The notes beneath the pieces were generated by a model. It had not been told where the DNA came from and did no database searches. It saw only the letters and a list, made by a program, of their open reading frames with translations. Both the position numbers and the translations under genes were made by a program. From Dyella halodurans (lineage in GTDB: Bacteria; Pseudomonadota; Gammaproteobacteria; Xanthomonadales; Rhodanobacteraceae): a DNA stretch of 64,000 nucleotides. Location of the stretch: assembly GCF_026283925.1 (NCBI RefSeq), contig NZ_JAPDPF010000008.1, positions 1-64,000 on the forward strand. The letters run 5' to 3'. Below, piece after piece: positions 157 to 56,972 of the stretch (position 1 is the stretch's first letter; every line of letters begins with the position of its first letter).

Positions 157-759
157 ATGAGGAACGATATGGTCGACTGGCGCTGTTGGATGACCGTTGC
201 AGCATTGGCAATTGCCGTACTCATCAGTCCGGCAGTTCTCGCACAGGCGACGGAAAACCTGGATGCGAGGCAACTTTCGATCAAGTGTGTCGTTGAGCAC
301 CCTAAAGAAGGCGACGCTATGCCGGTCGGGGTCACTAGGAGTTCGGCCAAAGAAGCCTCGGGAAAGCCCTGCGTAGGGGTTGCCACGATGCTCGCTGACG
401 GCACAGTGGTGTTTCTCCTGGAGAACCAAGCCCCTGGGCACCCACTGCGTGAGATTGAATTGCACTACGCGCCCAGTTCCGTCGGCTACAAAGGAGCTTT
501 GGACCAAATGGGAGGCCTCAAGCCTGGTGAAACCAAGGCAATTGATCCCATTCCGCCAAGCATAGGCGTTGCCTCCATGTCAGCAGACGGCACGTTGTCT
601 CTCCAATTGCGGATGGTCTCAAGCGGGGGAGCAATCGGCGAAGGGCTCGAGGAGATTAAGCCCGGTGACCCAGGATACGAATCGACTGTGAAGCACATTG
701 GGATAAAGCCCGGAGAGGTAAAGCGCATCCCGCCTTGGCCTGCCGGCCCCAAGAATTAG
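157..759 (+). CDS. exported protein with internal duplication, unknown function
   Basis: About 200 residues with an N-terminal signal peptide (a hydrophobic run ending in VLAQA), so probably periplasmic. Residues from about 75 to the end consist of two diverged copies of a roughly 60-residue unit. Each copy starts GVA(T/S)M-ADGT and ends (G/I)GIKPGE-K followed by a proline-rich turn (first copy GGLKPGETK). The open frame extends upstream to a GTG at 34, but the signal peptide places the real start at 157 (or 139); an AAGGGTAAG stretch lies 5 to 15 bases before 157. It opens an array of small genes, and its TAG stop overlaps the first hairpin repeat. I do not recognise the family. Function unknown. 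Confidence 0.7.
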   Translation: MRNDMVDWRCWMTVAALAIAVLISPAVLAQATENLDARQLSIKCVVEHPKEGDAMPVGVTRSSAKEASGKPCVGVATMLADGTVVFLLENQAPGHPLREIELHYAPSSVGYKGALDQMGGLKPGETKAIDPIPPSIGVASMSADGTLSLQLRMVSSGGAIGEGLEEIKPGDPGYESTVKHIGIKPGEVKRIPPWPAGPKN

Positions 760-800
760 GTGTCATTCGGACGTCCGCTTCCGACCCGAAGATGACCTAA
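758..800 (+). repeat. YCGACCC hairpin repeat, copy 1 (extended)
   Basis: This copy begins on the TAG stop of the preceding gene. Outer arms AGGT(GT)CAT and ATGACCT enclose CCGCTTCCGACCCGA, which matches the core of the other copies. The right arm differs from the family form. Confidence 0.6.
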
Positions 801-805
801 CAGAC

Positions 806-836
806 TGCCTCAAATTTGCTGTAACACTTCGATAGG
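806..836 (+). repeat. 31-nt duplicated leader segment, copy A
   Basis: This segment begins TGCCTCAAATTT and ends CTTCGATAGG. It recurs at 2870-2900 with three mismatches. Both copies follow a hairpin repeat and precede the start of a small exported protein gene, so repeat and leader may have been duplicated as one unit. Confidence 0.65.
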
Positions 837-849
837 TATTGGGGGAATT

Positions 850-1452
850 GTGAAGCTGCGGCTATTCTTTCTGTTCGCGCTATTAGCGGGGATCAATGTG
901 GCGTGTGCAGCGGAATCTGCAGACAAGAAGGGTTGTCGGAACGATCCGGATTTCCTTGCTGCATTCGGAGAGCCAACATTGACGGCTCGCGGCAAGGGGC
1001 CAGATTACTTCGCCATTAGACTTGTTTACCTGCCCACATTTCGACATCCCATTTTGGTCCGTTATGAAGAGGATGGCCGCAAGAGGGTCCGTCGCGCGGT
1101 CGTTCTGTCGGGGAAGGCGGGTTACGACCTGGGCGAGATCGCATTCCAACATACCGACGAGGCGTCCGGCACCGAAATCGCAGACATAAAGAAGGGATTG
1201 GAGCGAGCGAGGTATTGGGATCTCACATCGAGTGACGCGACCTTCGGCGCGGATGGAGACACATTGACGGTGGAAGTGATCCGTAACGGCCAATGCAAGG
1301 CAATATCTCGCTGGGAGCCGGAGCACAAGGCAACGGCGAGAGGGTTAGTGCCGCTTGTCGATCTCTACGTGGGTCTATTTGAGCGAGCTGCCATTTGGCG
1401 CGACGTTGCGCCGATGGCTTTTGGAAAGGACGATTACGTACCTCGGCGTTAA
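850..1452 (+). CDS. exported protein, unknown function
   Basis: A 200-residue protein starting at GTG behind a GGGGGAA ribosome-binding site. The first 20 residues form a signal peptide with probable cleavage after VACA. The mature part is soluble, with no membrane segment or motif I recognise. It lies second in the small-gene array, 90 bases after the first gene, with a hairpin repeat and the duplicated leader segment in between. A further hairpin repeat follows its stop. It may be a periplasmic accessory protein; no function can be assigned. Confidence 0.65.
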   Translation: MKLRLFFLFALLAGINVACAAESADKKGCRNDPDFLAAFGEPTLTARGKGPDYFAIRLVYLPTFRHPILVRYEEDGRKRVRRAVVLSGKAGYDLGEIAFQHTDEASGTEIADIKKGLERARYWDLTSSDATFGADGDTLTVEVIRNGQCKAISRWEPEHKATARGLVPLVDLYVGLFERAAIWRDVAPMAFGKDDYVPRR

Positions 1453-1460
1453 GACGAGAA

Positions 1461-1484
1461 GTCGGCTTTCGACCCGTAGCGGAC
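1461..1484 (+). repeat. YCGACCC hairpin repeat, copy 2
   Basis: Arms GTCGGCT and AGCGGAC (one mismatch) flank TTCGACCCGT. It starts 9 bases after the stop at 1452. Confidence 0.7.
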
Positions 1485-1516
1485 AACTGAACGACCGAAA
1501 TAGGGGAAGTCTTTTC

Positions 1517-1972
1517 ATGCGCACTTTGTTTTGCCTTGCGTGCCTATTGATCGCCGGAGGCGCAGAAGCTTCACAGGAAGCCAGTCGGGTCCAAGTGAGT
1601 GTGATATCCACCGAGCAACCACTGCGGTACTCGGCCAATACGGATCCGACGTTTGTCGCCTCGCAGCTCCGCCTGGCCACTGCCTACGATCAGGCTATCG
1701 CCAGCTCCACCGAGCACCTTCTCGCCGATATTCGGCTACCAAAGGGTGAGCGCTGTGATGTCGTTTTGATACTTCTTCCAGGTGGCTACGTCGTGAGGGT
1801 CGAGCCAGGGCAGTGCCCCCTATCGCCGACCGAATTGAAGACTATCAGTGACGCACTGGCGAATAGAACGCTGCCATACGAAGGCTATGAATCTGTGTTC
1901 ATGAGGCAGGCACACATTGCCTTATGCTCGCCTAGAGCGTCGTGTGGGGAATCGACGGTCAAGGCAGACTAG
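1517..1972 (+). CDS. small exported protein with TolA/TonB-C-like fold
   Basis: 151 residues starting at ATG 1517, where a signal peptide begins (hydrophobic run ending GGAEA); a GGGGAAG site lies 8 bases upstream. The frame is open further upstream to 1355, but that part is not signal-like. The C-terminal half has a cysteine followed by hydrophobic strands (CDVVLILLPGGYVVRVEPGQC), then a helix and the short TLPYEGYE stretch. This matches the pattern of TolA/TonB C-terminal domains without the usual transmembrane anchor and proline linker. A periplasmic role in contact with Tol/Ton components is a guess. The TAG stop is part of the next hairpin repeat. Confidence 0.65.
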   Translation: MRTLFCLACLLIAGGAEASQEASRVQVSVISTEQPLRYSANTDPTFVASQLRLATAYDQAIASSTEHLLADIRLPKGERCDVVLILLPGGYVVRVEPGQCPLSPTELKTISDALANRTLPYEGYESVFMRQAHIALCSPRASCGESTVKAD

Positions 1973-1998
1973 GTCCGCTTCCGACCCGGAGCGGACCT
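1971..1998 (+). repeat. YCGACCC hairpin repeat, copy 3 (perfect arms)
   Basis: Perfect 9-bp arms AGGTCCGCT and AGCGGACCT enclose the 10-nt loop TCCGACCCGG. The AG of the upstream TAG stop is the first two bases of the left arm. This is one of the two best copies in the window. Confidence 0.85.
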
Positions 1999-2022
1999 AA
2001 AGAAACCTGACACGAGGCATCA

Positions 2023-2316
2023 ATGATCTTCGCGGAAAAGGACCATCCGGCTGAGTACTGGGACTTTCATGAGGAGCTGAAAGACTTTCTCTGTAGTCAC
2101 TTTTCACGCGTCGAGTCGGGCATGCAGACTGATTCGTGGTTTTGGATTTTTGATGGCGGAGAGAAGGTGGCAATCGACACGTTCTCTTCGATGAAGCACC
2201 AGGTTAAATCAGCGCGCGCGGGCTCACATGTCGAGCACGTCATCGGCGTCCTTCGGCTCAAATGTCCGGTGCGGATTTATCCCAAGCCTGAGCTCGAAGG
2301 GCATGAGGAAGCCTAA
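2023..2316 (+). CDS. small cytoplasmic protein, unknown function
   Basis: 97 residues, no signal peptide or membrane segment, acidic and aromatic-rich in the N-terminal half (WFWIFDGGEKVAID), ending with a proline-containing strand. The ATG lies 24 bases after the preceding hairpin repeat, and another repeat follows 9 bases after the stop. The size, fold-like strand pattern and position resemble the small immunity-type or adaptor proteins found in accessory gene arrays, but I recognise no family and no toxin partner is visible. Function unknown. Confidence 0.6.
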   Translation: MIFAEKDHPAEYWDFHEELKDFLCSHFSRVESGMQTDSWFWIFDGGEKVAIDTFSSMKHQVKSARAGSHVEHVIGVLRLKCPVRIYPKPELEGHEEA

Positions 2317-2325
2317 GAGCTTGGA

Positions 2326-2354
2326 AGGTCCGCTTCCGACCCGGAGCAGACATT
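2326..2354 (+). repeat. YCGACCC hairpin repeat, copy 4
   Basis: Left arm AGGTCCGCT, loop TCCGACCCGG, right arm AGCAGACAT (two mismatches). It sits 9 bases after the stop at 2316. Confidence 0.75.
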
Positions 2355-2396
2355 AGACACACCGAACTTCCTTGCCAAAATTGAGGGGGTAATTTG

Positions 2397-2834
2397 ATGG
2401 GATGGGGGACGCTCTTCCAAGTCACGGACACCGCTCGAACACTGATTGCTCAGTGCGGAAGTAAAGGTGAGTGGTATGGGGCCTTGGATCAACTTCGCGT
2501 AGAGGTGGCGCCGAAGTGCGACGCGGAAGATTCGATTCGCTTTTGGGGTCTAGCGCTCGAAGGTCAACCATATCCCCTGTCAAAGTTGTTCCTGGGGGAC
2601 ATTCATGCAGATCTTGACGGAGCGAGCGACCCAAACGTTTCCTTTTTCGGTCAGGCTACGGTCCGGGATATCTCTCAGGCGCTGGACTCGAACGGGAGGG
2701 GGTTCTTCGAGGGTCTATTTACTGGGAAAGATCACCTCGACGCCGGACAGATATGGTTCTTTGAGCCATTGCGAGACTTCTTTAAGGACGCGTCCGCAAA
2801 AGGCTTGGCAGTGATCGCTCTATGGGAATGCTGA
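2397..2834 (+). CDS. small cytoplasmic protein, unknown function
   Basis: 145 residues starting at ATG 2397 behind a GAGGGGG ribosome-binding site; a TTG directly in front (2394) is less likely. No signal peptide. The C-terminal part (a helix with LRDFFKDASAKGLAVIALWEC) is vaguely reminiscent of the end of DUF1877-type proteins, which is too weak to name it. It is one of two cytosolic members of the small-gene array. The A of the TGA stop is the first base of the next hairpin repeat. Confidence 0.6.
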   Translation: MGWGTLFQVTDTARTLIAQCGSKGEWYGALDQLRVEVAPKCDAEDSIRFWGLALEGQPYPLSKLFLGDIHADLDGASDPNVSFFGQATVRDISQALDSNGRGFFEGLFTGKDHLDAGQIWFFEPLRDFFKDASAKGLAVIALWEC

Positions 2835-2862
2835 TGTCTGCTTGCGACCCGTAGCGGACCTA
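2834..2862 (+). repeat. YCGACCC hairpin repeat, copy 5
   Basis: Arms GTCTGCT and AGCGGAC flank TGCGACCCGT. The copy begins on the last base of the upstream TGA stop codon. Confidence 0.75.
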
Positions 2863-2869
2863 AAAGTAT

Positions 2870-2900
2870 TGCCTCAAATTTTCTGCAACTCTTCGATAGG
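2870..2900 (+). repeat. 31-nt duplicated leader segment, copy B
   Basis: Second copy of the segment at 806-836 (28 of 31 positions identical). It again lies between a hairpin repeat and a small exported-protein gene, and it supplies the GATAGG-type ribosome-binding site here. Confidence 0.65.
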
Positions 2901-2906
2901 GGATCG

Positions 2907-3386
2907 ATGATGCGCATTCGACTTGCCAGCCTGTTGTGCGGCATGAGTGCCACGCTCTTCATGTCGATCGCGTTGGCCGATGAGCACGGTGCGCGGGCAC
3001 TTCTGGAGAGAAGCTCCGCAGGCAATGGCTGGGACAAGGCAAGCGCGGCGCAGGTCGATATCGATTCTGATGGAAAGCCCGACTATGTGTTTCTTCGTCA
3101 GGACGCCACATCGGCCACTGTGGCTCTGATTCTGGGGGCGCAAGAGCACAGGGTCATCACTCGGACCTTTAGGATTGGCGGCCAATCGCAAAGTGACCTG
3201 TGTTCCGGACCAGTGTCGATCACGGTGGAGTCCCTCGACTACGACCCAATGGATGAGCCCGGCGCAATTGGCGGATTCAGACGATCTAAGGCTGGGGTAT
3301 CTTTCGCGCTCGTTGATGGAGAGTGCGACGCCTTCCATTTCTACTGGGACGTGGCGAAAAAGGATCTTGCCTGGTGGCGACTTTGA
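2907..3386 (+). CDS. exported protein with EF-hand/VCBS-like motif
   Basis: 159 residues with a clear signal peptide cleaved near ALA-DEH. Residues about 50-60 contain DIDSDGKPD, the calcium-loop signature seen in FG-GAP/VCBS repeats, followed by a beta-strand-rich region with paired cysteines (near residues 110 and 145). The start is at 2907, with a second ATG at 2910, behind GATAGGGG. It is probably a small periplasmic calcium-binding protein; the role is unknown. A perfect copy of the hairpin repeat follows about 45 bases downstream. Confidence 0.65.
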   Translation: MMRIRLASLLCGMSATLFMSIALADEHGARALLERSSAGNGWDKASAAQVDIDSDGKPDYVFLRQDATSATVALILGAQEHRVITRTFRIGGQSQSDLCSGPVSITVESLDYDPMDEPGAIGGFRRSKAGVSFALVDGECDAFHFYWDVAKKDLAWWRL

Positions 3387-3431
3387 CGCGTGTGCACGGG
3401 ACCACATCCACTTGGGACACGGTTCGGCCTC

Positions 3432-3459
3432 AGGTCCGCTCCCGACCCACAGCGGACCT
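3432..3459 (+). repeat. YCGACCC hairpin repeat, copy 6 (perfect arms)
   Basis: Perfect 9-bp arms AGGTCCGCT and AGCGGACCT flank the loop CCCGACCCAC. It lies in the 255-base gap between two small exported-protein genes; I see no other feature in that gap. Confidence 0.85.
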
Positions 3460-3641
3460 TTCGACACGGTCTAAATTGGGCAACAGCGCAAGGTAACCAA
3501 CCCAAGCACGTTATTCAGGTCGCAGCTTACTCTCACCAAGCCCTCATTATTTTGTGCAAATCCCTCATGTCTTCTGGGGAGCAAGAGTTCAACATCGAGC
3601 CTGCCCAGGTGGGTGCATCCACGTCAGAGGAGGCCATCATC

Positions 3642-3947
3642 ATGAAGCGCTTGATTATCCCCGCGGTTATCGCCTTAGGCTTCGCCTTCATTGGACAGGC
3701 CAATGCAGCGATTGAAACCTACACCGTCGACTTGAATGGTTATGTGGTTGTGGCTTTCGTCGGAGCCACGCCAGCCGAAGTTGCCCAGGCGGAACACCTG
3801 GCGAAGAGCTGGGAAGCTCAGCGTCACCTGATGCTTAAGCCGCAATCGATGAAAGCAGTTGCGGTCCGCCAGTCGGCAACCGTTGCCCTGACGCAGGCTC
3901 AACTACGTAGTGCCATCGTCGGAGCCGCACTGGCAAAAGGACCATGA
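3642..3947 (+). CDS. small periplasmic protein, unknown function
   Basis: 101 residues starting at ATG 3642 behind an excellent AGAGGAGG site. The signal peptide ends in GQANA-AIE, and the mature protein has about 79 residues with two short strands then alanine-rich amphipathic helices. The frame is open upstream to 3390, but the ribosome-binding site and signal peptide fix this start. It is the last member of the 0-4 kb array. A strong hairpin and a further YCGACCC repeat follow. Not recognised. Confidence 0.7.
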   Translation: MKRLIIPAVIALGFAFIGQANAAIETYTVDLNGYVVVAFVGATPAEVAQAEHLAKSWEAQRHLMLKPQSMKAVAVRQSATVALTQAQLRSAIVGAALAKGP

Positions 3948-4006
3948 AAGCCCATTGCGGCAGGTGACCTTGATAAGCGCCACCGATTGGGCGCTACGGC
4001 AGGAAG

Positions 4007-4034
4007 GAAGCTCGCGAGCTGCCTCGCGAGCTTC
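4007..4034 (+). terminator. strong hairpin, possible terminator
   Basis: Perfect 12-bp arms GAAGCTCGCGAG and CTCGCGAGCTTC with a CTGC loop, about 60 bases after the stop at 3947. No clear T-tract follows, so it may act as an RNA-stabilising or Rho-linked structure instead of an intrinsic terminator. Confidence 0.5.
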
Positions 4035-4045
4035 GCTGTTGATTA

Positions 4046-4073
4046 GGTCTGCTAGCGACCCGAAGCTGACCTT
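4046..4073 (+). repeat. YCGACCC hairpin repeat, copy 7
   Basis: Arms AGGTCTGCT and AGCTGACCT (one mismatch) around AGCGACCCGA. Directly downstream of the 12-bp hairpin. Confidence 0.75.
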
Positions 4074-4130
4074 GGAAGATCGGGCCGTGATCACGCCTGC
4101 TGACTCGTGGTGAGGCTGGCGCCGTCCTGG

Positions 4131-4400
4131 CTAATCGACCAGCACCTCGCGCCATTCCTTCACGGTCCAACGGCCGACCACGCCTTCGGTCACGAACGGA
4201 TCGCCGCGAATGAATTCTTCGGCGGCTTCCCGGGTGGTGAAGATGCCTAGTGCGCCTTGGGTCGGGTCTGCAAATGGGCCGGCCATCAGCAGCACACCCT
4301 TCGCGTGGAACTCGCGAAGACGGGCGGCGTGGGCGGGACCTTGTTCCATGGCTTTGGGGAGGCCGCCCGGTGCAAGCTCGTAAGACATCACGTATTTCAT
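4131..4400 (-). CDS. YciI-like protein
   Basis: 89 residues, matching the YCII-related family over its full length: an N-terminal strand MKYVMSYEL, then HAARLREFHAKGVLLMAGPFADP, a glycine-rich strand, and the DPFVTEGVVGRWTVKEW block typical of the C-terminal half. Family members are small ferredoxin-like proteins, some with dehalogenase or lyase-like chemistry; the substrate here is unknown. It is transcribed away from the TetR gene, with a 327-base gap upstream that includes the near-palindrome CCCACGCGTGTGGG at 4422-4435. Confidence 0.85.
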   Translation of the reverse strand: MKYVMSYELAPGGLPKAMEQGPAHAARLREFHAKGVLLMAGPFADPTQGALGIFTTREAAEEFIRGDPFVTEGVVGRWTVKEWREVLVD

Positions 4401-4727
4401 GGTGCGTCACTCCGTAGGTGTCCCACGCGTGTGGGAGCAGGTGAGCCCGGCAGGTGATGACGGTTAGCAATCAAGCAAGAACGGCTGCAGCCTGAATCCT
4501 TGGCTTGGTGAAGTCTTGTTGCGCGCGAAGCAAGGACCTACGGGCAAGCTTTGACAGTTGTCGGAGGTTCCGTGTGGTCTGCTTCCCACCCATTATAGAT
4601 ACTCGGTTCCGCCTTCAATGACACTGGCTGTAGCCGGGGTTGGGGCATCAAGAGAGCATAGTGGGGCCTTCGACGTCATTCTCTCTCTGGAACGCATAGG
4701 TGCGCGTGATACAGGCGCGCCGCTAAG
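4401..4727. promoter_or_regulatory. divergent intergenic region between yciI-like and tetR genes
   Basis: 327 bases without a gene. It holds CCCACGCGTGTGGG at 4422-4435 (5-bp arms with a GCGT centre), TTGACA at 4551-4556, and a TATAGAT stretch at 4594-4600. The two hexamer-like elements are too far apart to be one promoter. No firm promoter can be assigned. Confidence 0.3.
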
Positions 4728-5414
4728 ATGCGTGAAGCCTTTCCTTTCGGTCTTGGCATGCCCAAATCTCCCCATTCCGCTTCGCCCCAATCCGCCCCCG
4801 GCGCCGATGCATCGCCGCCGCGCAAGCGCGGGCGTCCGGCGCAGGACGCCAACGAAGGCTTGCGCAGGGAGCTTATCGAGCAGTCGGCCCGGCTGTTTCG
4901 CGAAAAGGGCTACGGCAATACCACGGTGCGCGATATCGCCGCGGCGGCGGGCGTGCATGCGGGCAGCTGGTTTTACCACTTCAAAACCAAGCAGGACATT
5001 CTGCAGGCGGTGATCGAGCATGGCCTGACGGTGGCGCTGGCCGATATCGAAGCCATCGACGTGGATGGCCTGCCTCCCCGCGAAGCGATGCGACAGCTGG
5101 TACGAGCGCACCTTTACACCCTGCTCGCACCGAACCAGGACTTCATTCCGGTGATGCTGTACGAATGGCGCTCGCTGGACGCCTCGGCGCAGGAACACAT
5201 CATTGCGCTCAAGGATCGCTACGAGTCGATCTGGACGCGTGTCATCGAGCGCCTGCATGCATCGGGCGAATGGGTGCAACCGACGCCCGTAGACCGATTG
5301 CTGATGTTCGGCGCGCTCAACTGGACGGCCCAGTGGTATCAGGCCGGCGCCGGCATCAGCATCGACGCGCTCGCCGATCAGGCGGTGCGTTTCATCCTGC
5401 GCACGGCGCCGTAA
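4728..5414 (+). CDS. TetR/AcrR family transcriptional regulator
   Basis: 228 residues (218 if started at ATG 4758; neither start has a strong ribosome-binding site). After a basic, proline-rich tail (PRKRGRP), residues about 45-95 form the TetR DNA-binding domain with helix-turn-helix TTVRDIAAAAGVHAGSWFYH and the usual FKTKQDIL continuation. The C-terminal helical part would bind a ligand. The gene runs into the 3-prime end of the atu-type operon with a 38-base gap. It is a plausible repressor of that operon responding to an acyl-CoA or terpenoid, which is inference from position only. Confidence 0.9.
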   Translation: MREAFPFGLGMPKSPHSASPQSAPGADASPPRKRGRPAQDANEGLRRELIEQSARLFREKGYGNTTVRDIAAAAGVHAGSWFYHFKTKQDILQAVIEHGLTVALADIEAIDVDGLPPREAMRQLVRAHLYTLLAPNQDFIPVMLYEWRSLDASAQEHIIALKDRYESIWTRVIERLHASGEWVQPTPVDRLLMFGALNWTAQWYQAGAGISIDALADQAVRFILRTAP

Positions 5415-5452
5415 GGACAATGCAGCAGCGCTACGCTGGCGCGTGCCGCCGC

Positions 5453-7446
<1,994 letters not shown>

Positions 7447-29890: not shown

Positions 29891-29917
29891 GACGCCCGCT
29901 TCCGACCCATGGCAAAC
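29891..29917 (+). repeat. degenerate YCGACCC repeat
   Basis: CCGCTTCCGACCCATGGC matches the left arm and core of the family, 9 bases after the lldD stop; the right arm is eroded. Confidence 0.45.
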
Positions 29918-30041
29918 AGTGCTTGCTAGACAGAGTCCTGGTGATGGCGCAAGCGCGATTCGTCACCAGGCCAGACAGTAGTCGCGTCGCCGACTCCGCC
30001 TTCATACTGCGGGGCACCCTTGGTATCGGTCCGGAGTCGTC

Positions 30042-33607: not shown

Positions 33608-33977
33608 AGACGGCTCAAGTCCATTCAACGTTTTCGCAAAGTGGACCTGCCGCTTGTTCGCGCGCCAGCACGGCGGCGCGGAGGTTGCCGTTGAGAGATC
33701 GTTGCGCAGGTGCGCTCCCGGCCCGCAGTGGACATGCCTCGACCAGGCACCTCCCGCCTTAGTCAGAACTTTGCCGGGTCGGCACGGTCCCATTCCCGTT
33801 GCTCGGTGCTTGAAGAGCGTCCTGCCTACACCGCTTGCGCCTGTCGGCACTTGAGCAGCCAGTGACCATCGACCAGGCATGGCGTTTTTCCGCGGGCACA
33901 CCTGCCGTTTAATGGAAGCGAAACAGACGTTCATGGCAGCACGGGGCATGAAGCCTACTGCCCAAGGGAGCTCGCTG
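33608..33977. other. intergenic region with one repeat copy
   Basis: 370 bases holding a YCGACCC-type repeat at 33708-33735 and nothing else I can support. Minus-strand frames here are shadows. Confidence 0.4.
33708..33735 (+). repeat. YCGACCC repeat, diverged copy 12
   Basis: AGGTGCGCT, core CCCGGCCCGC and AGTGGACAT align with the consensus with several changes; pairing is partial. Confidence 0.45.
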
Positions 33978-34688
33978 ATGGGATTGCTGGGAGGGAAATC
34001 TGAAGGCCTTCCCTTGTCGGCTCGCCGGATCTCGGCCATGGTGGTGGCGATCGGCTGCCATCTCGTTCTGTTGATGGCACTGTTGCGACCGGCAGGCCCC
34101 AGTACGGATAGGCCACCGCAACTGAAGGATGATGAGCCTGCGCTCAAGGTGTCGCTCACCTCGCTGCCGCGGCCGAGCTCCATGCCGCCTGCGTCACCCG
34201 CGCTCCGTCCCGTTGTTCCTCCGGAGGCATCAGCGAAAGGCTGGGTACCACCATCAGCCCAACGCGAGGTGCGTGTTGCGGCACGGGCTCACGAAGCCGA
34301 TGCCATCAGCGCGTCGCCCCCATATGTCGCCCCTGACTCGTCTGCCACCACCGATCGGTACACGAACCATCCATCCCCCATGGGAGATGGAGGATTTCGA
34401 GATCGGATGCTCGACGCTCAGCACTCCCAGGGCATTCGAGGGGTCCCCGGGTCCGGTAGAGCCGTCGCGCCCGGCTTCGAGTTGACCAACCCCATGGATC
34501 AGGGCATCGGTTCGGTGATGCGCAGCGCGCAGCGTCTTTTCGGCGTTACGAATCGCCATTGCATCGACGTCGATGTGTGGCAGCACCTTTCGCCGGACGA
34601 ATTGAAGGATAGACACCTCACGGCGGCTGACGTAGAAAGGGAATCCGAGAAATACAACTGCAACCGCCCGCTTGGACTCAACTTCTAG
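33978..34688 (+). CDS. proline-rich inner-membrane protein, TonB-like layout (paralogue)
   Basis: 236 residues from ATG 33978, which follows AAGGGAG; ATG 33948 is an alternative. One membrane helix (ISAMVVAIGCHLVLLMALL) near the N terminus is followed by a Pro/Ser-rich periplasmic region. A C-terminal helical part reads MDQGIGSVMRSAQRLFGVTNRHCIDVDVWQHLSPDEL. The sequence just after the helix resembles that of the protein encoded at 27442, suggesting a small family with TonB-like topology but a different tip. Its TAG stop overlaps a hairpin repeat. Function unknown. Confidence 0.68.
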   Translation: MGLLGGKSEGLPLSARRISAMVVAIGCHLVLLMALLRPAGPSTDRPPQLKDDEPALKVSLTSLPRPSSMPPASPALRPVVPPEASAKGWVPPSAQREVRVAARAHEADAISASPPYVAPDSSATTDRYTNHPSPMGDGGFRDRMLDAQHSQGIRGVPGSGRAVAPGFELTNPMDQGIGSVMRSAQRLFGVTNRHCIDVDVWQHLSPDELKDRHLTAADVERESEKYNCNRPLGLNF

Positions 34689-34715
34689 GTCTGTTTTCGA
34701 CCCGTTGCGGAACTT
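34687..34715 (+). repeat. YCGACCC hairpin repeat, diverged copy 13
   Basis: AGGTCTG, core TTCGACCCGT and GCGGAACTT. The left arm contains the AG of the upstream TAG stop. Confidence 0.6.
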
Positions 34716-35060: not shown

Positions 35061-35096
35061 AGGTGGCCTGTGCGCTCCCGGCCCGCGGCGGGCCTC
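35061..35096 (+). repeat. YCGACCC repeat, strongly diverged copy 14
   Basis: TGCGCTCCCGGCCCGC resembles copy 12 at 33708. It sits about 30 bases after the membrane protein stop and before the next gene. Low confidence as a separate unit. Confidence 0.35.
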
Positions 35097-50090: not shown

Positions 50091-50282
50091 ATGGCCTATC
50101 TGGAGTTTTCGTGCTTTCTCGCCGGCCTGTTGGCGCTTGTGGTCGGGTATCGCCGACACAAGCGAAACCTGCTCTTGATCGGAGCCTTTGCCTGGCTTCT
50201 TGCTGGAGGACTCGGCGATTTCTCCCAAGGCCTTGCTGACGGCCTTGCTACCCCGCGGCCATCACTGAGCCACACAAAATAA
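50091..50282 (+). CDS. small membrane protein (63 residues)
   Basis: Start at ATG 50091, six bases after GGAG (AAGGAG at 50079-50084); an in-frame ATG at 50085 is too close to that site. One or two hydrophobic segments: MAYLEFSCFLAGLLALVVGY, then RRHKRN and LLLIGAFAWLLAGGLGDF. The positively charged hairpin between them suggests an N-out/C-out topology. Family unknown. Confidence 0.5.
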   Translation: MAYLEFSCFLAGLLALVVGYRRHKRNLLLIGAFAWLLAGGLGDFSQGLADGLATPRPSLSHTK

Positions 50283-50387
50283 CCCAGGTTCGATGCCGGT
50301 CCGTGGCGGGCAACGCAGGTGGTGTACTGGAGCCAATAGCAACGTTCCGTTGTAGATATGAGTCTTTCAATACCAAGGAGATAGTTC

Positions 50388-50921: not shown

Positions 50922-51046
50922 CTAGTGTCATAGGGGCGTGCACCCGGGGCGAATCTCAGGTGCCCATGCTGCCGTGGCATGTGCTGGAACGACCGGCTGA
51001 AGCCGCAACATGCAGTAGATGTTGCGATGCTTAAGGAGGACGAGAC

Positions 51047-51352
51047 GTGACTCAAGGATTGAAACTTCTGTGGCTTTTCCTCGTCCTTTCTATTCTCGCT
51101 GGTTGCTCGAGGTCGTTTTCAGCAGGTCCGGCAGGAACCTCAGCAGACGGACAGCCCTACTTCGTCATTTACGACGGACCGGCCAGGACGTGCCAGCCGC
51201 CACGGTTTGACGGCGCAGCTTGGACTGGTGGGTATGGCACGGCAGTGCCCGTCGCTGCCGGGATGCATCGCTTCGAATGCGACGGCACTGTTATTACGCT
51301 GAACATGCCCAAGGGCATGATTTACCGAGTGGACTACCGCCAGCTGCAGTAG
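51047..51352 (+). CDS. small lipoprotein, unknown function
   Basis: 101 residues from GTG 51047 behind AAGGAGGAC. The lipobox LSILAGC places the lipidated cysteine at about residue 20. The mature part is beta-rich, with paired cysteines (RTCQPP and HRFECDG) and ends VDYRQLQ. It is probably an outer-membrane-linked periplasmic protein. The TAG stop overlaps one of the best hairpin repeats. Confidence 0.7.
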   Translation: MTQGLKLLWLFLVLSILAGCSRSFSAGPAGTSADGQPYFVIYDGPARTCQPPRFDGAAWTGGYGTAVPVAAGMHRFECDGTVITLNMPKGMIYRVDYRQLQ

Positions 51353-51378
51353 GTCTGCTGCGGACCCTGGGCAGACCT
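51351..51378 (+). repeat. YCGACCC-family hairpin repeat, copy 15 (perfect arms)
   Basis: Perfect 8-bp arms AGGTCTGC and GCAGACCT with the loop TGCGGACCCTGG. Compared with copies 3 and 6, one stem pair has changed on both sides (C to T and G to A), so pairing is preserved. The left arm overlaps the upstream TAG stop. Confidence 0.8.
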
Positions 51379-51413
51379 TATTGCGGCCCACAAAGAGGCC
51401 AAGGAGCAAGTGG

Positions 51414-52295
51414 ATGCATCGCCGTAACGTATTGAAGGGAACTGCCCTGGGCTTGGCGGCTTTGGCGTCGCTGCCGCTGACCTCATTGGCAAAGACCAGT
51501 CCAGTCAAACCGAGCAAGATCGCTGCCTTGGAACATCAATTCGGCGGCACGCTCGGCGTGGCGGTTTATGACATGGAGACCGGGGGACGATCGGGTTATC
51601 GGGCGGATGATCGATTCCTGATGTGCAGCACGTTCAAGCCGCTGGCCGTCGCTGCGGTTCTCAGGCGAGTGGATGAGGGCAAGGAGGCGCTTGATCGTCG
51701 CGTCATATACGGGCGCGAGTCGCTGCTTGCACATGCCCCTGTCACCAGCCTGCATGCCACTGGAGAAGGGATGACCGTAGCTGAGCTGTGCCAGGCAGCC
51801 ATCACGGTAAGTGACAATACGGCAGGAAACCTATTGCTCACGAGCCTTGGTGGTCCCAGTGGCCTCAACGCTTTCTTGCGGGACATAGGCGACATAGTCA
51901 CTCGACTCGATCGAGTCGAGCCCGTATTGAACACGGTGAGTCCAGACGGCCCGCTTGATACGACATCGCCGAACGCCATGCTCCACGACGTCGAAAAGAC
52001 GCTTTTCGGGGAGGTTTTAACAAGGCAGTCCCGCGAACTGCTTACCGACTGGCTCTGCAATACGACCAACGGCCTGAGCATGATCAGGGCAGGGCTTCCC
52101 AAGGCATGGCGGGGCGGAGACAAGCCGGGTCGGGGTGGTGATGGCTCAACGAACGATGTTGCCGTGGTCTGGCCGACGGGTCGAAGGCCGCTTCTCATCG
52201 CTGCCTACTACTTCAATCCTGCTATGGAGGTAAATGACCGAGACCAAGTCCTGGCGGACGTCGGTCGGGTTATCGGCCGCGATTTCGCGGCCTGA
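51414..52295 (+). CDS. class A beta-lactamase, Tat-exported, L2-like
   Basis: 293 residues from ATG 51414 behind AAGGAG, starting with a twin-arginine signal RRNVLKG. Active-site motifs: Ser72-Thr-Phe-Lys75 (Ambler S70xxK, preceded by Cys as in L2), Ser133-Asp-Asn (SDN) and Glu169 in EPVLN (E166). The usual K234-T/S-G triad reads Lys237-Pro238-Gly239 here, so the hydroxyl at Ambler 235 is lost. It resembles Stenotrophomonas L2 along its length. It would hydrolyse beta-lactams in the periplasm, but the KPG change may alter activity or substrate range. No ampR-type regulator is adjacent. Confidence 0.93.
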   Translation: MHRRNVLKGTALGLAALASLPLTSLAKTSPVKPSKIAALEHQFGGTLGVAVYDMETGGRSGYRADDRFLMCSTFKPLAVAAVLRRVDEGKEALDRRVIYGRESLLAHAPVTSLHATGEGMTVAELCQAAITVSDNTAGNLLLTSLGGPSGLNAFLRDIGDIVTRLDRVEPVLNTVSPDGPLDTTSPNAMLHDVEKTLFGEVLTRQSRELLTDWLCNTTNGLSMIRAGLPKAWRGGDKPGRGGDGSTNDVAVVWPTGRRPLLIAAYYFNPAMEVNDRDQVLADVGRVIGRDFAA

Positions 52296-52309
52296 CAATA
52301 GCTGGAAGC

Positions 52310-52335
52310 ATGCGCCTCCGACCCGAAGCAGGCAT
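52310..52335 (+). repeat. YCGACCC repeat, diverged copy 16
   Basis: ATGCGCCT, core CCGACCCGA and AGCAGGCAT; 14 bases after the beta-lactamase stop. Outer ATGC and GCAT still pair. Confidence 0.55.
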
Positions 52336-52432
52336 CGTAAGGCGAGCCACTGGTGAGGCTGTGGCTATCGATCAACGCGCCCAAGGGAATCCGCCGAAAA
52401 CCATGTTCGGCGGATCCACGAGCGTCAGCTTT

Positions 52433-52741
52433 TTAGCCGCAGCTGCCGCAACAGTCACCATGCGCATGCTTGTCTCGTGCCTTGGACGAGTCAACAAGGC
52501 TGATGTCGATGACAGTCAGATCGGGATGGGTCTGCCGATAGTTGAACGTCAGGTTGTCGCCGAAACGGTCGCGCAGTTGGGCAAGAAGCGGCAGTGGATT
52601 GTGGTCGTTGAAGAAGCGCATGGTTTCGCCAGGATGCAAGGCGTCAAGGGCGCCAAATATTGCCGCATGGCGAAAGCGGCGAGCCACGCCTCGGGCGTCA
52701 AAGCTATGAATGTTGGCTTCGAGGGGGGTGTCTATGGACAT
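52433..52741 (-). CDS. DUF2249 domain protein
   Basis: 102 residues. The DUF2249 fold covers residues about 13-80: FDARGVARRFRHAAIFGALDALHPGETMRFFNDHNPLPLLAQLRDRFGDNLTFNYRQ, then a strand VIDISLV. The extreme C terminus HGDCCGSCG has three cysteines and could bind a metal. Such genes are frequently linked to nitrogen-oxide or low-oxygen metabolism in other bacteria. Consistent with that, an FNR/DNR-like palindrome lies 66 to 79 bases upstream of its start. A longer plus-strand frame over the same DNA is rejected. Confidence 0.85.
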   Translation of the reverse strand: MSIDTPLEANIHSFDARGVARRFRHAAIFGALDALHPGETMRFFNDHNPLPLLAQLRDRFGDNLTFNYRQTHPDLTVIDISLVDSSKARDKHAHGDCCGSCG

Positions 52742-52806
52742 AGCGGTACGGTAAGGCCTGTTGACTACGGGAGTTTCAACGTACGCTACCGGCTTGCTCG
52801 ATGTCC

Positions 52807-52820
52807 CTGACTTAAGTCAG
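52807..52820 (-). promoter_or_regulatory. FNR/DNR-like palindrome upstream of the DUF2249 gene
   Basis: CTGACTTAAGTCAG is a perfect 14-base palindrome matching the TTGAC-N4-GTCAA type of site used by CRP/FNR-family regulators such as DNR/NnrR, with one changed base at each end. Its centre is 72 bases from the start codon; a -41.5 position would give a leader of about 31 bases. Confidence 0.55.
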
Positions 52821-53031
52821 CACAATCATCAGGCGGGCCGTTGGGATCGTGCAGATTGATGCGGATCCCGGTCAGCCTCGAGCGCGGCGCCGGTCCGAAC
52901 CCGATAAGGACTTGGCGGCTGCTGATCCGCGGGTGTTGCTGGCACGTTTTCAGGCTTGCTTTCGAACCATGGCGAACGCTTGCGCGGCAGGTTCGATGTC
53001 CGTTTTTCAGGTAGTTGGATCAGGGGATTCC

Positions 53032-53604
53032 ATGCAAATGTCCAAGGCTTTCTGGATGGGACCAGCCGCATTGGCGCTGTTGTTTTGTAGCCAAGCGGCG
53101 TCTGCCGATCCCGCTGCAAACGCCGCGGGACACTTGTTCATGCAGGTCTGCCGTGCCGACAACCTGGCCCATCCCGAACGTATCCGTGCGTGGGCGGCTG
53201 AGCATCATCTTCCAGAGGTTAGCAACCCCAAGGGCCGCGCCGTCTTCGTCGGCGACGGGCCGAATGGCATCGCGTGGCATATTCACGACGACAACACCGA
53301 ACTGGTTTTGGCTATCCGCAGTAAGACAGGTGGTTGCGCCGTTTATGCGGAGCCACTCGATCCAGCGGCACTAGGCCAGATCTACAGCATGTTGATCGCG
53401 GGCTACGCCAAAGAGTTTTCCGTGACGACCCCGCTTCCGGACAAGGCACAGCCGGGTCCTTACGGTACGGCCACCGGCAAAGTGCGGCTGGTTGATGGTC
53501 CAGACAGCAAGTCTCAGCTACTGCTCACTCTGATCACCCATGAGAAACCGGGTGGGCCATATCAAGGAGCGCTTCAAATCACGCTTACACATCGGTCAAG
53601 CTGA
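53032..53604 (+). CDS. exported protein, unknown function
   Basis: 190 residues from ATG 53032 (AGGGGA upstream). The signal peptide ends near AASA-DPA. The mature protein has two cysteines (FMQVC and GGCAVYAEPLD), a central glycine-rich strand region (FVGDGPNGIAWHIHDDNTELVLAI) and a beta-rich C terminus (LLTLITHEKPGGPYQGALQITL). The layout recalls the NMCC_0638-type family of small exported proteins, from memory and with low confidence. It stands alone between the DUF2249 gene and another exported-protein gene. Confidence 0.68.
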   Translation: MQMSKAFWMGPAALALLFCSQAASADPAANAAGHLFMQVCRADNLAHPERIRAWAAEHHLPEVSNPKGRAVFVGDGPNGIAWHIHDDNTELVLAIRSKTGGCAVYAEPLDPAALGQIYSMLIAGYAKEFSVTTPLPDKAQPGPYGTATGKVRLVDGPDSKSQLLLTLITHEKPGGPYQGALQITLTHRSS

Positions 53605-53794
53605 TGCGTCGTCCAACTATGGCCCACGTCGTCTCGATCAACGTCCGCTTCTGTCTGTCAGTGGAGCTTGGCGATGGCCTAGCAGCTGACCCCCAGCGAA
53701 AGATCCGATGCCGACCCGGATGGGGCACCTCATCGCCAGGTTTTTCCAATGGAATCCATCAAAAGTGAGACTTCGCGGAATGGAGTGGTGTCTG

Positions 53795-54484
53795 ATGGCG
53801 CGTAGGTTGTTTGGGAAGGTCATCAAACTGGCCACGTTGGTCTTCTTTCCCGCAGCGATGTGTTCTTGTGCCACCGCATATGACGCGATGAAGTCTCCGG
53901 TCGATCATGACTACCCGGCGGCGAATCCGTCCGCCATTCAAACCCTTCTACTGACGGGCGAAGCCGATCCCGCCTTTCGGATAAGAATGGCGATGCGCTG
54001 GGTCGCAAGAAATCCCGACTGCTCTGTCAATATGAATTGGCTTGAAGGCGTGCGTGGCGCCTATTACGCGGACGTGCCGCTCGATCTGAGCTGGAAAGGT
54101 ACCCACTATGCGACGCTTGTTCCTCTCGATGGACGTGCCCCAGGACGTTGCAATTGGTCGTTCAGGTCAATCGTGGTTTCCGGTGTAGACGACCGGGGTC
54201 GGATTTTGGAACTGGCGGAGTGGCGGCACCCCTCACCCGATGAGAAGAAGGCCTACTCGGCCCAGGAGGTCTGGGGTGACCTGGTCATGCTATCGACTGC
54301 GCCGCTGCAAAAGAAGGACGAATCCGGCGTGCGCAATCTGATCTGCGTACCGAGCCATGAAAACCCTTATCGTCCGGCTGTCCTGCACTGCGGAATGAGG
54401 GTTCTTGAGTCGGGATGGACCGTCGGTTCTACGCTTTGGATAGCACCTTCGACGACGCAGGCTCAGGTCAACTTTCGGTATTGA
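53795..54484 (+). CDS. probable exported lipoprotein, unknown function
   Basis: 229 residues from ATG 53795 (GGAG 9 bases upstream; in-frame ATGs at 53780 and 53708 are open). The hydrophobic leader ends FFPAAMCSCATAYD, so one of its two cysteines may be lipidated, though the lipobox is poor. The mature part has about five cysteines, a helical segment FRIRMAMRWVARNPDCSVNMNWLEG and a beta-rich C-terminal half with ILELAEWRHPSPDEKKA. Not recognised. A small inverted repeat follows its stop. Confidence 0.6.
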   Translation: MARRLFGKVIKLATLVFFPAAMCSCATAYDAMKSPVDHDYPAANPSAIQTLLLTGEADPAFRIRMAMRWVARNPDCSVNMNWLEGVRGAYYADVPLDLSWKGTHYATLVPLDGRAPGRCNWSFRSIVVSGVDDRGRILELAEWRHPSPDEKKAYSAQEVWGDLVMLSTAPLQKKDESGVRNLICVPSHENPYRPAVLHCGMRVLESGWTVGSTLWIAPSTTQAQVNFRY

Positions 54485-54505
54485 TGGGAACGTAAGATTC
54501 CCATC
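54483..54505. terminator. weak inverted repeat between convergent genes
   Basis: GATGGGAA and TTCCCATC with a 7-base loop. It overlaps the stop of the lipoprotein gene and lies between it and the convergent lipocalin-like gene. No T-tract; the role is uncertain. Confidence 0.35.
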
Positions 54506-54590
54506 CCGAGAGGATATCCGCCATATCCGGGAAACTGCCTTTTCCCGGCGCGTCGCCATGCGATCGCCGCCGCTACGCCAACATGCGCTT

Positions 54591-55136
54591 CTATGAGTGG
54601 ACGCGACGCCACACGACTTCGCCATGGGCGCCTTCAGCCGCGCCACTCGATGGCTTGGCGACGATATAGGTCAGCTCGTCGCCATGGATGGTGTAATGCG
54701 AGTCGCCGATCCGGCCGTCCCAGTTGGGGAACGACGCGTGCACGATTTCGCTGCGCATGACATTGGCGTCGGCGCTCACGTGACCGTAGTGGGCATTGCT
54801 GTCCATCGAAGCGGCCCGATACTCCTCAGGCGTGCCCTTGGATTTGTCGTTGGCTGCAAATGGCATGCGCTTCGCGCGCACGATCTGCATCATGTAGTCG
54901 CCCTGCGCGTCGATAAGCCACATGCCCGTGGGGTTGGGGCCGTAGAGCTCCACGCGGTGGCCATCGGGATAGACGTTGTCGCAACGGACCAGCGTCCACG
55001 CGCCGACCAGTTCCTTGGGAACCATGCCGTGGCTGGCGCTTTCGCCAGGCTTCATGGCGTCCTGGGCGGCCAGGATCGGTGATGCGGCTGCGGCGACGAA
55101 GAGGCAGGAAACGAGCAGGCGTTTGGCGAATGACAT
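54591..55136 (-). CDS. exported lipocalin-like protein
   Basis: 181 residues from ATG 55136 with a signal peptide (SCLFVAAAASPILA). The mature part fits the lipocalin-like domain: the entry motif ELVGAWTLVRCDNVYPDG, NPTGMWLIDAQGDYMMQI, a central loop rich in charged residues, and the final strand GDELTYIVAK with VVWRRVH. Members form small beta-barrels that may bind hydrophobic ligands. It is transcribed divergently from a LysR gene with a palindrome in between, so it is the likely regulated target. Confidence 0.82.
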   Translation of the reverse strand: MSFAKRLLVSCLFVAAAASPILAAQDAMKPGESASHGMVPKELVGAWTLVRCDNVYPDGHRVELYGPNPTGMWLIDAQGDYMMQIVRAKRMPFAANDKSKGTPEEYRAASMDSNAHYGHVSADANVMRSEIVHASFPNWDGRIGDSHYTIHGDELTYIVAKPSSGAAEGAHGEVVWRRVHS

Positions 55137-55216
55137 GGCGACACCTTCGGTGGAGCGGTGGATCGGATACTCGCTCATGGGTTTGGTTTTGATAATGGGC
55201 CTCCATGTTTATTGAC

Positions 55217-55235
55217 CTTCAAATGCTATTTGAAG
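55217..55235. promoter_or_regulatory. palindromic operator candidate between lipocalin-like and LysR genes
   Basis: CTTCAAATGCTATTTGAAG has 8-bp arms around GCT. It lies in the 138-base divergent intergenic region, 40 bases before the LysR start and 81 before the other gene. It contains the T-N11-A layout typical of LysR-type binding sites. It could serve both autoregulation and target control. Confidence 0.6.
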
Positions 55236-55274
55236 ATGATCCAGCTCAAGCCCTACGCGCCAGGACCGGGACTC

Positions 55275-56204
55275 ATGAACCGCTTCAGCGACATGCAGCT
55301 TCTAGTCGACGTGGCCGACCTCGGCAGCCTCTCGGCGGCCGGGCGTCGAGCCGGGCTTTCACCTGCTGCGGCCAGCGCCTGCGTGCAACGCGTGGAGACG
55401 ATGCTTGGGGCACGGCTGTTCGAGCGCACGACGCGTCAATTGCGCCTGACGGATGAGGGACGCATCTACATCGCCTCCTGCCGGGTCGCCATCGAAACCA
55501 TGAAGGAGGCTGAGCGCGCGGTGCGCAGCGGCACCGACGCGGTCAGTGGGACGCTGCGGGTGTCGGCGCCGTCGGATCTTGGGCGCAACCTGCTGGTCCA
55601 TATCCTCAACGGCTTCATGGAGCTTCACCCCGACGTGCGCGTTGTGCTGACGCTGTCGGATTCGCTCTCGCGCTTCGTGCCCGACGATGTCGACGTCGCC
55701 ATCCGCGTTGGTCCTTTGGAGAACAGCGATCTCGTCGCGCGCCACCTTGCCGATAGCTGGCGTGTGGTGTGCGCATCGCCCGCATGCATCGAGATCCATG
55801 GCATGCCAGCACAACCCGAGGAACTCGCCGAGCTGCCCACCCTGGTATTGACCACCCATGCGGGACCCAGAAATGAGTGGCAACTCGGCGCGGATGTCGT
55901 ACGCGTGCGGCGATATCACGAGTGCACTGACAGTGAGGTGATACGCACCTGGGCTGTATTGGGACGCGGATTTGCGTACCGGCAGCTTTGGGCAGTCACG
56001 GCGGATGTAAGCGCTGGCCGGCTGCAGCTCGTCCATGCGCCGGCCTGGTCCGCTCCCTCTCCCATCCACGCGATGTATCACCCCAGCGTGTTTCAGCCGC
56101 TACGCGTACGCCGCTTCGTCGATTTCCTTCAGGCAGAGTTTTCCCAGCGGCTTGCGATCAAGGGCCAGAACGGCTTCGCGTCGGCATTCAAGCGGGAGCC
56201 ATGA
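55275..56204 (+). CDS. LysR family transcriptional regulator
   Basis: 309 residues from ATG 55275 (the frame is open further upstream). The N-terminal winged helix has DVADLGSLSAAGRRAGLSPAAASACVQRVETMLGARLFERTTR, which is the LysR DNA-binding signature, and the effector domain follows at about 90-295 (SGTLRVSAPSDLGRNLLVHIL to the end). The sequence is of the group with short-chain aromatic or unknown effectors. It is divergent from the lipocalin-like gene, which is its probable target. No other regulator-linked gene is close. Confidence 0.92.
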   Translation: MNRFSDMQLLVDVADLGSLSAAGRRAGLSPAAASACVQRVETMLGARLFERTTRQLRLTDEGRIYIASCRVAIETMKEAERAVRSGTDAVSGTLRVSAPSDLGRNLLVHILNGFMELHPDVRVVLTLSDSLSRFVPDDVDVAIRVGPLENSDLVARHLADSWRVVCASPACIEIHGMPAQPEELAELPTLVLTTHAGPRNEWQLGADVVRVRRYHECTDSEVIRTWAVLGRGFAYRQLWAVTADVSAGRLQLVHAPAWSAPSPIHAMYHPSVFQPLRVRRFVDFLQAEFSQRLAIKGQNGFASAFKREP

Positions 56205-56972
56205 TCTGAGGGGTCCGCTGTCGACTCCGGCTTCAGTGGGTCGCCGCAACACTCTGCGGACGTTGCCAGCTCCAGAAATTCCGCGATGACCATCATCTGA
56301 GGTCGAACCCGATAGGCATGGCCCGACCATGGTCCGTGATGCTTGCCATGAGTGCGCGTCAGGAGAGTCCGCAACCTTTGAGATGTCGGCGCGCAGGGTA
56401 GCCAACCTCGGGCTCGGCATGCCGCCGGTCCTACGCGACTACTTTCTCGCGTTCGAGAGATTCAGGGCCCGACGGTCGCTAGCTTCTTCCATGCCCCGAT
56501 CATCCGGTCGGGTGACCCTGGCCTTCCGTCCCGAAGATTGCTTCGCCCGGTTTCTGCACAGGGCTTGCGCTTGGCGACGACGGCAAGGGATCTTGTCGGC
56601 CCCATCGCCTCGATCAGCCAGATGCCATCGTTCAGTGGGATGCTGAATGGGGCGAAGCGCTGGAGGCGCAGCAGGGGACTCTGGCGGACATTTGGCCAGC
56701 CCAGAAGGCAGATTACGCTAGGATCGGGGGCAGCTTCGTGACAGTCAAAGCGTCTGCTTCCGACCCCTGGCGGACATGGCAACCCTGCCAAGAAAGTTCT
56801 TGCTATGGCTCGCCATGACGCGCACACCTCGAAGTAGCGAATGTAAGCATAGATCCTGACCAACGAATCCAGGTCGTAAACTGGAGCGGGCACCAAGTTC
56901 GACTGATGCGAAAAGGCAGCGACCGGACTTACTTCGGGCCGTGCGGTTTTCTATAAGAGGAGGCTTGCATCG
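56205..56972. other. 768-base region without a supported gene
   Basis: Contains one repeat copy at 56751-56774. Several frames of 60-144 codons on both strands lack ribosome-binding sites and protein-like features. A degenerate repeat-like stretch near 56211 may be present. It could be a decayed gene or a regulatory desert. Confidence 0.35.
56751..56774 (+). repeat. YCGACCC hairpin repeat, copy 17
   Basis: GTCTGCTT, core CCGACCCCT and GGCGGAC. Core intact, arms partly paired. No gene ends next to it, which is unlike most other copies. Confidence 0.6.

What the first reader, a model, noticed from the sequence alone, without database searches (positions are those of the whole stretch)
758..56774. 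A dispersed hairpin repeat with a conserved loop and fixed orientation
About fifteen copies share arms of the AGGTCCGCT/AGCGGACCT type around a YCGACCC loop (good copies at 1461, 1971, 2326, 2834, 3432, 4046, 51351; weaker ones at 758, 33708, 34687, 35061, 52310, 56751). All read in the same direction on the plus strand. Stem changes are paired (copy 15 has TG/CA where others have CG/CG), and the loop is at least as conserved as the stem, which suggests recognition of the folded RNA or DNA. At least six copies overlap the stop codon of a small gene. There is no T-tract, so they are unlikely to be simple intrinsic terminators.
Basis: seen in the sequence. Interest (0 to 1): 0.8.

Follow-up and report, generated by a model that had tools for sequence, protein, structure and literature searches.

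The report
Integron-like gene-cassette array with palindromic sites
The repeated 'hairpin' looks like a DNA cut-and-join site separating exchangeable one-gene cassettes, probably swapped by a small Xer-like recombinase: an integron-like gene-shuffling system that does not use the known integron parts.

Summary
The repeat is real, but it is not an RNA element. It is a 28-bp site: two 11-bp inverted arms around a 6-bp asymmetric centre, CGACCC. It separates single-gene units in long arrays with fixed orientation. In 58 fetched loci (56 with sites, from 14 genomes) there are 526 sites; 399 of 414 neighbouring pairs share orientation, median spacing is 512 bp, and in 353 of 387 units the longest ORF points toward its site. 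The arms hardly covary in 484 sites. The same cassette recurs in different neighbourhoods and species, with identity switching inside the site centre: the footprint of site-specific cassette exchange. The best candidate enzyme is a 207-aa Xer-like tyrosine recombinase encoded where two arrays diverge. In 38 of 80 named relatives the gene has outward-pointing site centres on both sides. No integron integrase reached its cut-off in 12 genomes. It thus works like an integron, with a different enzyme and a dif/loxP-like site. Main weakness: many array-bearing genomes lack the recombinase, and recombination was not tested directly. Ten literature searches found no description.

The parts
1..127 (.). 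end of an IS110-family element; other copies of it lie in the left arm of a site, and it probably explains why the contig starts here
   Evidence: matches the element's end in L034, L035, L036 and L039; junctions read; transposase NF033542 1.4e-102 in the L034 copy
771..798 (+). cassette recombination site 1
850..1452 (+). cassette ORF, 200 aa
1459..1486 (+). cassette recombination site 2
1517..1972 (+). cassette ORF; stop codon overlaps site 3
1971..1998 (+). cassette recombination site 3 (10 of 10 arm pairs)
2023..2316 (+). cassette ORF, 97 aa; its cassette (1971-2352) recurs at 95% in G049, with both ends at sites and other outer flanks
2326..2353 (+). cassette recombination site 4
2394..2834 (+). 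cassette ORF; stop codon overlaps site 5
2834..2861 (+). cassette recombination site 5
2907..3386 (+). likely cassette ORF, 159 aa; a longer frame (2874-3467, 197 aa) is open on the other strand
3432..3459 (+). cassette recombination site 6
3642..3947 (+). cassette ORF; its cassette (3432-4073) recurs at 98.6% in contig C22 of the same genome and 97% in G102, with unrelated outer flanks
4045..4072 (+). cassette recombination site 7; last site of this array
29892..29919 (+). degenerate site (3 mismatches)
33708..33735 (+). degenerate site (3 mismatches)
34687..34714 (+). degenerate site overlapping the stop of ORF 33879-34688
35068..35095 (+). degenerate site (4 mismatches)
51351..51378 (+). 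cassette recombination site; the following stretch 51415-52329 is 86% identical to part of the G124 array (one end at a site)
52308..52335 (+). degenerate site closing the 51-52 kb unit
56750..56777 (+). cassette recombination site (1 mismatch)

Best explanation
Each repeat is a double-stranded site for a tyrosine recombinase: two 11-bp inverted arms that would bind recombinase protomers, and a 6-bp asymmetric strand-exchange centre (CGACCC) that gives the site its direction. Directly repeated sites bound single-gene cassettes; each cassette starts with a right half-site and ends, just after its stop codon, with a left half-site. Recombination at the centre would excise cassettes as circles, reinsert them at other sites, and so build and shuffle arrays. 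The enzyme is most likely the 207-aa Xer-like recombinase at C1:123406-124026, a gene that in many relatives lies between outward-facing platform sites, and from which arrays run in both directions. Shown: array anatomy, cassette reuse with breakpoints in the centre, near absence of arm covariation, outward sites around the recombinase gene. Inferred: excision as circles, this recombinase as the enzyme, possible inversion of its gene, any fitness value of the cassettes.
For: Arrays: 526 sites in 58 loci (2 of them without a site), 399 of 414 neighbours co-oriented, median spacing 512 bp, 20 in base-shuffled sequence; longest ORF in site direction in 353 of 387 units, median 137 aa and 82% of the unit. 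Exchange: of 79 untruncated alignments near arrays, 73 of 158 ends fall at a site in both partners (3.1% of positions lie that near a site), 26 at both ends, some between species and genera; all 63 boundaries examined are orientation-consistent and identity switches between N9 and N17. Arms assort nearly independently in 484 sites, as expected if halves are reshuffled. Recombinase at the divergence point: sites outward 17 of 17 and 12 of 12 in G124, 17 of 17 and 2 of 2 in G081, 3 of 3 and 3 of 4 in G000. Relatives: outward centre within 200 bp upstream 50 of 91, against 8 of 91 inward and 15 of 87 at 1 kb; downstream 59 of 89 against 17 of 89 inward (Fisher 1e-11, 2e-7, 2e-10). The best downstream match to centre plus cassette-type outer half has 0 or 1 mismatch in 49 of 89, against 1 of 89 inward and 2 of 85 at 1 kb. 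Both flanks outward in 38 of 80 named loci (28 groups labelled by me), both inward in 1. R58, K86, H155, R158, Y190 invariant and H181 at least 90% in 57 sequences (catalytic roles recalled); nearest solved structures XerH-difH and XerA.
Against: Only 16 of 147 family genomes have the recombinase at E 1e-20, while 68 of 147 have model matches to the site at E 1e-4, many in genomes without it (e.g. G113, G102, G013, G049, G064). G102 still holds one cassette three times at 95-99% identity. Across 274 genomes of the class, genomes with at least 3 sites are 3 of 15 with the recombinase and 11 of 259 without (counted by hand): a weak link. Most of the 80 named recombinase loci have no array beside them. 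In G000 and G124 the downstream site is about 890 bp from the gene, not close. No excision product or activity was seen. Positions N9, N16 and N17 are poorly inherited on either side, so exact cleavage points are unresolved.
Confidence: 0.8

Rival explanations
1. Cassette exchange at these sites is real but another enzyme does it (host XerCD or an unrelated recombinase); the short recombinase is only a small mobile element that inserts into such sites.
For: Array-rich genomes without the short recombinase; in G113 a 298-aa tyrosine recombinase lies about 10 kb from an array; distant recombinase genes mostly stand alone; in many relatives the gene is bounded by inverted half-sites, as an inserted element would be.
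Against: Of the other tyrosine recombinases examined near arrays in G000, G081 and G102, all are longer, two of the three are related to each other, and none is shared by all (prophage-type by my reading). In G124 and G081 arrays run outward from the short recombinase, and its outer half-sites are of cassette type in many relatives.
Confidence: 0.15
2. A true integron with unusual attC sites: IntI recombines folded bottom-strand hairpins.
For: Cassette arrays, one gene per cassette, site at the 3' end of the gene, and an IS110-family element that targets the site, as IS1111 elements do for attC (passages of PMC11187229).
Against: No TIGR02249 match over cut-off in 12 of 12 genomes; the short recombinase scores 22 bits against a cut-off of 265; 28-bp sites almost without covariation; crossover in the middle of the site.
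Confidence: 0.03
3. An RNA hairpin at gene ends (terminator, processing or stability element) or a REP-type repeat.
For: Position just after stop codons on the coding strand; palindrome.
Against: Little or no covariation, no T run, no Rfam match in the window, arrays rather than dispersal, breakpoints at the centre.
Confidence: 0.02

Closest known systems
Integrons (IntI, attI, attC, gene cassettes; arrays without integrase are called CALIN)
   Same: Arrays of mostly single, unrelated genes, same orientation, site at the 3' end of the gene, tyrosine recombinase beside some arrays, many arrays without the enzyme, IS110-family insertion into sites.
   Different: No IntI over cut-off; recombinase is a short Xer-like protein; site is 28 bp, dif-like, hardly covaries and is recombined in the middle; arrays leave the recombinase in both directions.
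Xer-dif (pdif) modules of Acinetobacter
   Same: Genes bounded by Xer-type sites; seen in passages of PMC7399989; 11-6-11 geometry recalled.
   Different: Those use host XerCD and dif-like sites, reported as inversely oriented around modules (a reference title); here sites are directly repeated in long arrays, and the arms do not resemble dif (recalled).
Simple tyrosine recombinases, e.g. XerH/difH, XerA
   Same: Fold and catalytic residues.
   Different: About 207 aa, no separate N-terminal core-binding domain evident in the model; linked to cassettes rather than to chromosome dimer resolution.
IS1111-attC group insertion sequences
   Same: An IS110-family element repeatedly inserted at one position of a recombination site.
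   Different: The target is this site, after GTCYG in the left arm, not attC.

Membership tests
Integron | integron integrase IntI | tested here: not met
   0 of 12 genomes over the TIGR02249 cut-off
Integron | array of co-oriented single-gene cassettes with a site at the gene's 3' end | tested here: met
Integron | attC site that travels whole with its cassette | tested here: not met
   28-bp site split between neighbouring cassettes, breakpoints in its centre, little covariation
Integron | recombination of a folded single (bottom) strand | not testable with these tools
   needs biochemistry
Integron | attI-like primary site next to the recombinase | tested here: met
   outward sites next to the gene, many with a lineage-specific inner half and a cassette-type outer half; function inferred
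Integron | IntI-specific insertion in the catalytic domain | tested here: inconclusive
   IntI chains 2a3v match the model with larger E-values than XerH; the insertion was not compared directly
Tyrosine recombinase, Xer-like | catalytic residues and fold | tested here: met
   PF00589 2e-21, conserved residues, XerH/XerA best matches; the full-length XerC/XerD/XerA cut-offs are not reached
Xer-dif (pdif) module | dif-like XerC/XerD sites used by host XerCD | not tested
   only the 11-6-11 geometry was compared, from memory
REP/RAYT repeats | dispersed extragenic repeats with a RAYT transposase | tested here: not met
   copies form ordered arrays and move as cassette ends; RAYT genes themselves were not searched
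Intrinsic terminator | GC hairpin followed by a T run | tested here: not met
   sequence read; the site profile shows no T run

The most novel reading that the evidence does not exclude
A second, independently evolved integron-class system: a short Xer-like recombinase with dif-like double-stranded sites and a two-sided platform shuffles single-gene cassettes in many Proteobacteria, on chromosomes and plasmids, and has been overlooked because its site resembles an ordinary hairpin repeat.
Probability: 0.6. Interest if true: 0.92.

Novelty: new variant of a known kind. Interest (0 to 1): 0.82.

Why it matters
Integrons are the textbook bacterial system for collecting single genes as exchangeable cassettes (recalled). 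A parallel system with a different enzyme, a different site and a two-sided platform would show that gene-cassette shuffling evolved more than once, would explain large sets of unexplained small genes in these bacteria, and gives a compact recombinase and a 28-bp site that can be tested directly. Relatives of the recombinase also occur on 388 of 72,556 plasmid records at E 1e-30; of these only the surroundings of two were looked at, and not for arrays.

Tried and rejected
RNA family reading: no Rfam match in the window. Folded-hairpin reading: covariation at or near shuffle level. REP/RAYT reading: rejected on array order and breakpoints; RAYT genes not searched; the paper search for it returned nothing. 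Other recombinases beside arrays: longer and not shared by all. A model search of the window's genome gave 115 matches at E 1, many of them the same place on both strands. In 25 distant recombinase genomes a relaxed pattern gave 255 matches against 114 for the reversed control (summed by hand); a clear excess only in some (27 vs 2, 31 vs 8, 17 vs 4), none in others (5 vs 13, 8 vs 11). De novo search for arrays beside the 80 named recombinases: clear only in L156 (Dyella), mixed in L158, near shuffle level in the rest (top 40 printed). First structure model poor (pLDDT 50.1); the second, with 57 sequences, good (84.6). Defence content: only two PADLOC families were hit, by one member each, among 100 cassette proteins, so 'defence island' was not pursued. 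Literature: ten searches listed no paper that, by its title or abstract start, describes this system; subscription journals and preprints are not held.
Full report
What is in the window. The first 4.1 kb hold seven copies of a 28-bp palindromic site (771, 1459, 1971, 2326, 2834, 3432, 4045), all on the + strand, each preceded by an ORF. More copies, mostly degenerate, lie at 29.9-35.1 kb and 51.3-56.8 kb. Twelve copies at up to 3 mismatches compare with 0.11 expected. The first 127 bp are the end of an IS110-family element. The genome has 25 contigs; 81 matches at up to 3 mismatches (reversed control 8) cluster, many at contig ends, probably because IS110 copies inside sites break the assembly (inference).

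Anatomy of the site. The profile of 482 sites shows an arm GTCYGCT, a variable pair, the asymmetric centre CGACCC, a variable pair and the arm AGCRGAC, with weaker A and T outside: 11 + 6 + 11 bp, the geometry of tyrosine-recombinase core sites such as dif (recalled). A structural hairpin should covary. With 67 own-genome copies 78.7% of cells pair against 77.0% shuffled (14 of 500), the covariation score is reached by 42 of 500 shuffles, and pairs changed on both sides are fewer than in most shuffles. With 484 copies observed and expected Watson-Crick pairs agree, including 311 against 311.0 at a variable pair; the largest departure is 453 against 449.9 (11 of 300 shuffles). Two outer pairs have a weak excess.

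Arrays. I compared 58 fetched loci from the window's genome and 14 relatives; L111 (G040) and L128 (G081) hold no site and were kept in the counts. They hold 526 sites against 20 in base-shuffled sequence; of 414 neighbour pairs closer than 2 kb 399 share orientation; median spacing 512 bp. The loci were mostly chosen because they hold sites, so this density is not a genome average. In 387 units with an ORF of at least 50 aa the longest ORF follows the site direction in 353; its stop is a median 17 nt before the site and it fills a median 82% of the unit. For 100 proteins picked by hand from units of three genomes, most of them from the list of ORFs of at least 110 aa plus two further window ORFs, 53 Pfam families are hit, none by more than 2 members, and two PADLOC families by one member each. 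Smaller arrays with the same or a TGACCC centre occur in other families of the class.

Exchange. All-against-all comparison of these loci gave 128 alignments of at least 150 bp and 80% identity; 79 lie near arrays and are not cut by locus ends. Of their 158 ends 73 fall within 20 bp of a site centre in both partners (3.1% of positions are that close to a site), and 26 alignments have both ends there. Some alignments are listed from both directions, so they are not all independent. Cases include window 3432-4073 with contig C22 (98.6%) and with G102 (97%), window 1971-2352 with G049 (95%), and pairs between genera at 84-86%. Aligning 30 upstream and 33 downstream boundaries, all orientation-consistent, shows random-level identity on one side and high identity on the other, switching inside the centre; two upstream rows are out of register. 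Cassettes thus end in half-sites, which also explains the nearly independent arms.

The recombinase. Contig C1 encodes a 207-aa protein with Phage_integrase (PF00589, 2e-21); its start lies about 60 bp from a site. It resembles Xer proteins without reaching their full-length cut-offs and scores 22 bits against 265 for the integron integrase model. A model from 57 sequences (pLDDT 84.6) is nearest to XerH bound to difH and to XerA. The genome also has a decayed fragment at C19:456948, and G035 and G040 have remnants. In G124 all 17 and 12 sites, and in G081 (Dyella sp. OK004) all 17 and 2 sites within the 20-kb locus point away from the gene; in G000 6 of 7 do, the exception having 4 mismatches.

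Conservation of the pairing. The search for related loci kept the 80 best of at least 594 relatives, so these are the nearest relatives, not a random sample; 76 of 80 have an intact frame. In these 80 plus 11 family loci the centre, read outward, is found within 200 bp upstream in 50 of 91, against 8 of 91 inward and 15 of 87 at 1 kb; downstream in 59 of 89 against 17 of 89 inward (tests). Averaged over groups that I labelled from record titles, upstream is 27.8 of 56 against 3.7, downstream 37.6 of 55 against 13.5. Many downstream sites have an inner half that is constant within a lineage (GTCGCTAAC in several Pseudomonas rows) and an outer half of cassette type; a centre CGGCCA was scored two mismatches better, in the controls too. 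In G000 and G124 no good downstream site lies this close; the next is about 890 bp away. The loci are related by descent, so the tests overstate independence.

What speaks against. Only 16 of 147 family genomes have the recombinase at E 1e-20, and many site-rich genomes lack it; integron arrays too can lack an integrase (CALIN, named in an abstract listed), but this leaves the enzyme unproven. G102 has recent-looking cassette copies without it. Class-wide co-occurrence is weak. Most named recombinase genes stand without an array, and in 25 such genomes site counts exceed the control only in part.

Comparison with the known. It works like an integron: cassettes, arrays, platform sites, a tyrosine recombinase, and an IS110-family element that targets the site. 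It is not filed as an integron: no IntI over cut-off in 12 of 12 genomes and the site is recombined at its centre. Papers seen only in passages: PMC11187229, PMC8138268, PMC8352920, PMC7399989; all others only as search listings. The passages seen do not describe this system, and ten searches listed no paper that does.

Noticed in passing
L034:13665-14963 (C1), window 1-127, and ends of L035, L036, L039, L043, L046, L047: An IS110-family element repeatedly inserted at one position of the site: five left junctions read GTCYG|TATATGGACTCC, right junctions CATTG|CTTNCGACCC; right junctions also in other species (L138, L143). A natural case for a guide-RNA target study.
   Followed up: partly
window 806-836 and 2870-2900: Two otherwise different cassettes begin with a 90% identical 31-nt stretch just after the site, hinting at composite cassettes or a shared expression signal.
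   Followed up: no
window 4007-4034: Perfect 12-bp inverted repeat just before the last site of the array; part of it is seen again in the other copies of the cassette.
   Followed up: no
L236 5801/5883, L237 3886/3968, L239 4685/4767 (G190); L040 6734/6794 (C18): Divergent pairs of sites 60-82 bp apart.
   Followed up: no
L242 (G313), L249 (G374): Arrays in other families use the centre TGACCC instead of CGACCC.
   Followed up: no
L034:10749-12953: A 734-aa protein with a TIR domain and tetratricopeptide repeats lies between two sites.
   Followed up: no
plasmid and phage collections: Relatives of the recombinase occur on 388 of 72,556 plasmid records (E 1e-30) and on 3 of 50,697 phage records (E 1e-20).
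   Followed up: partly
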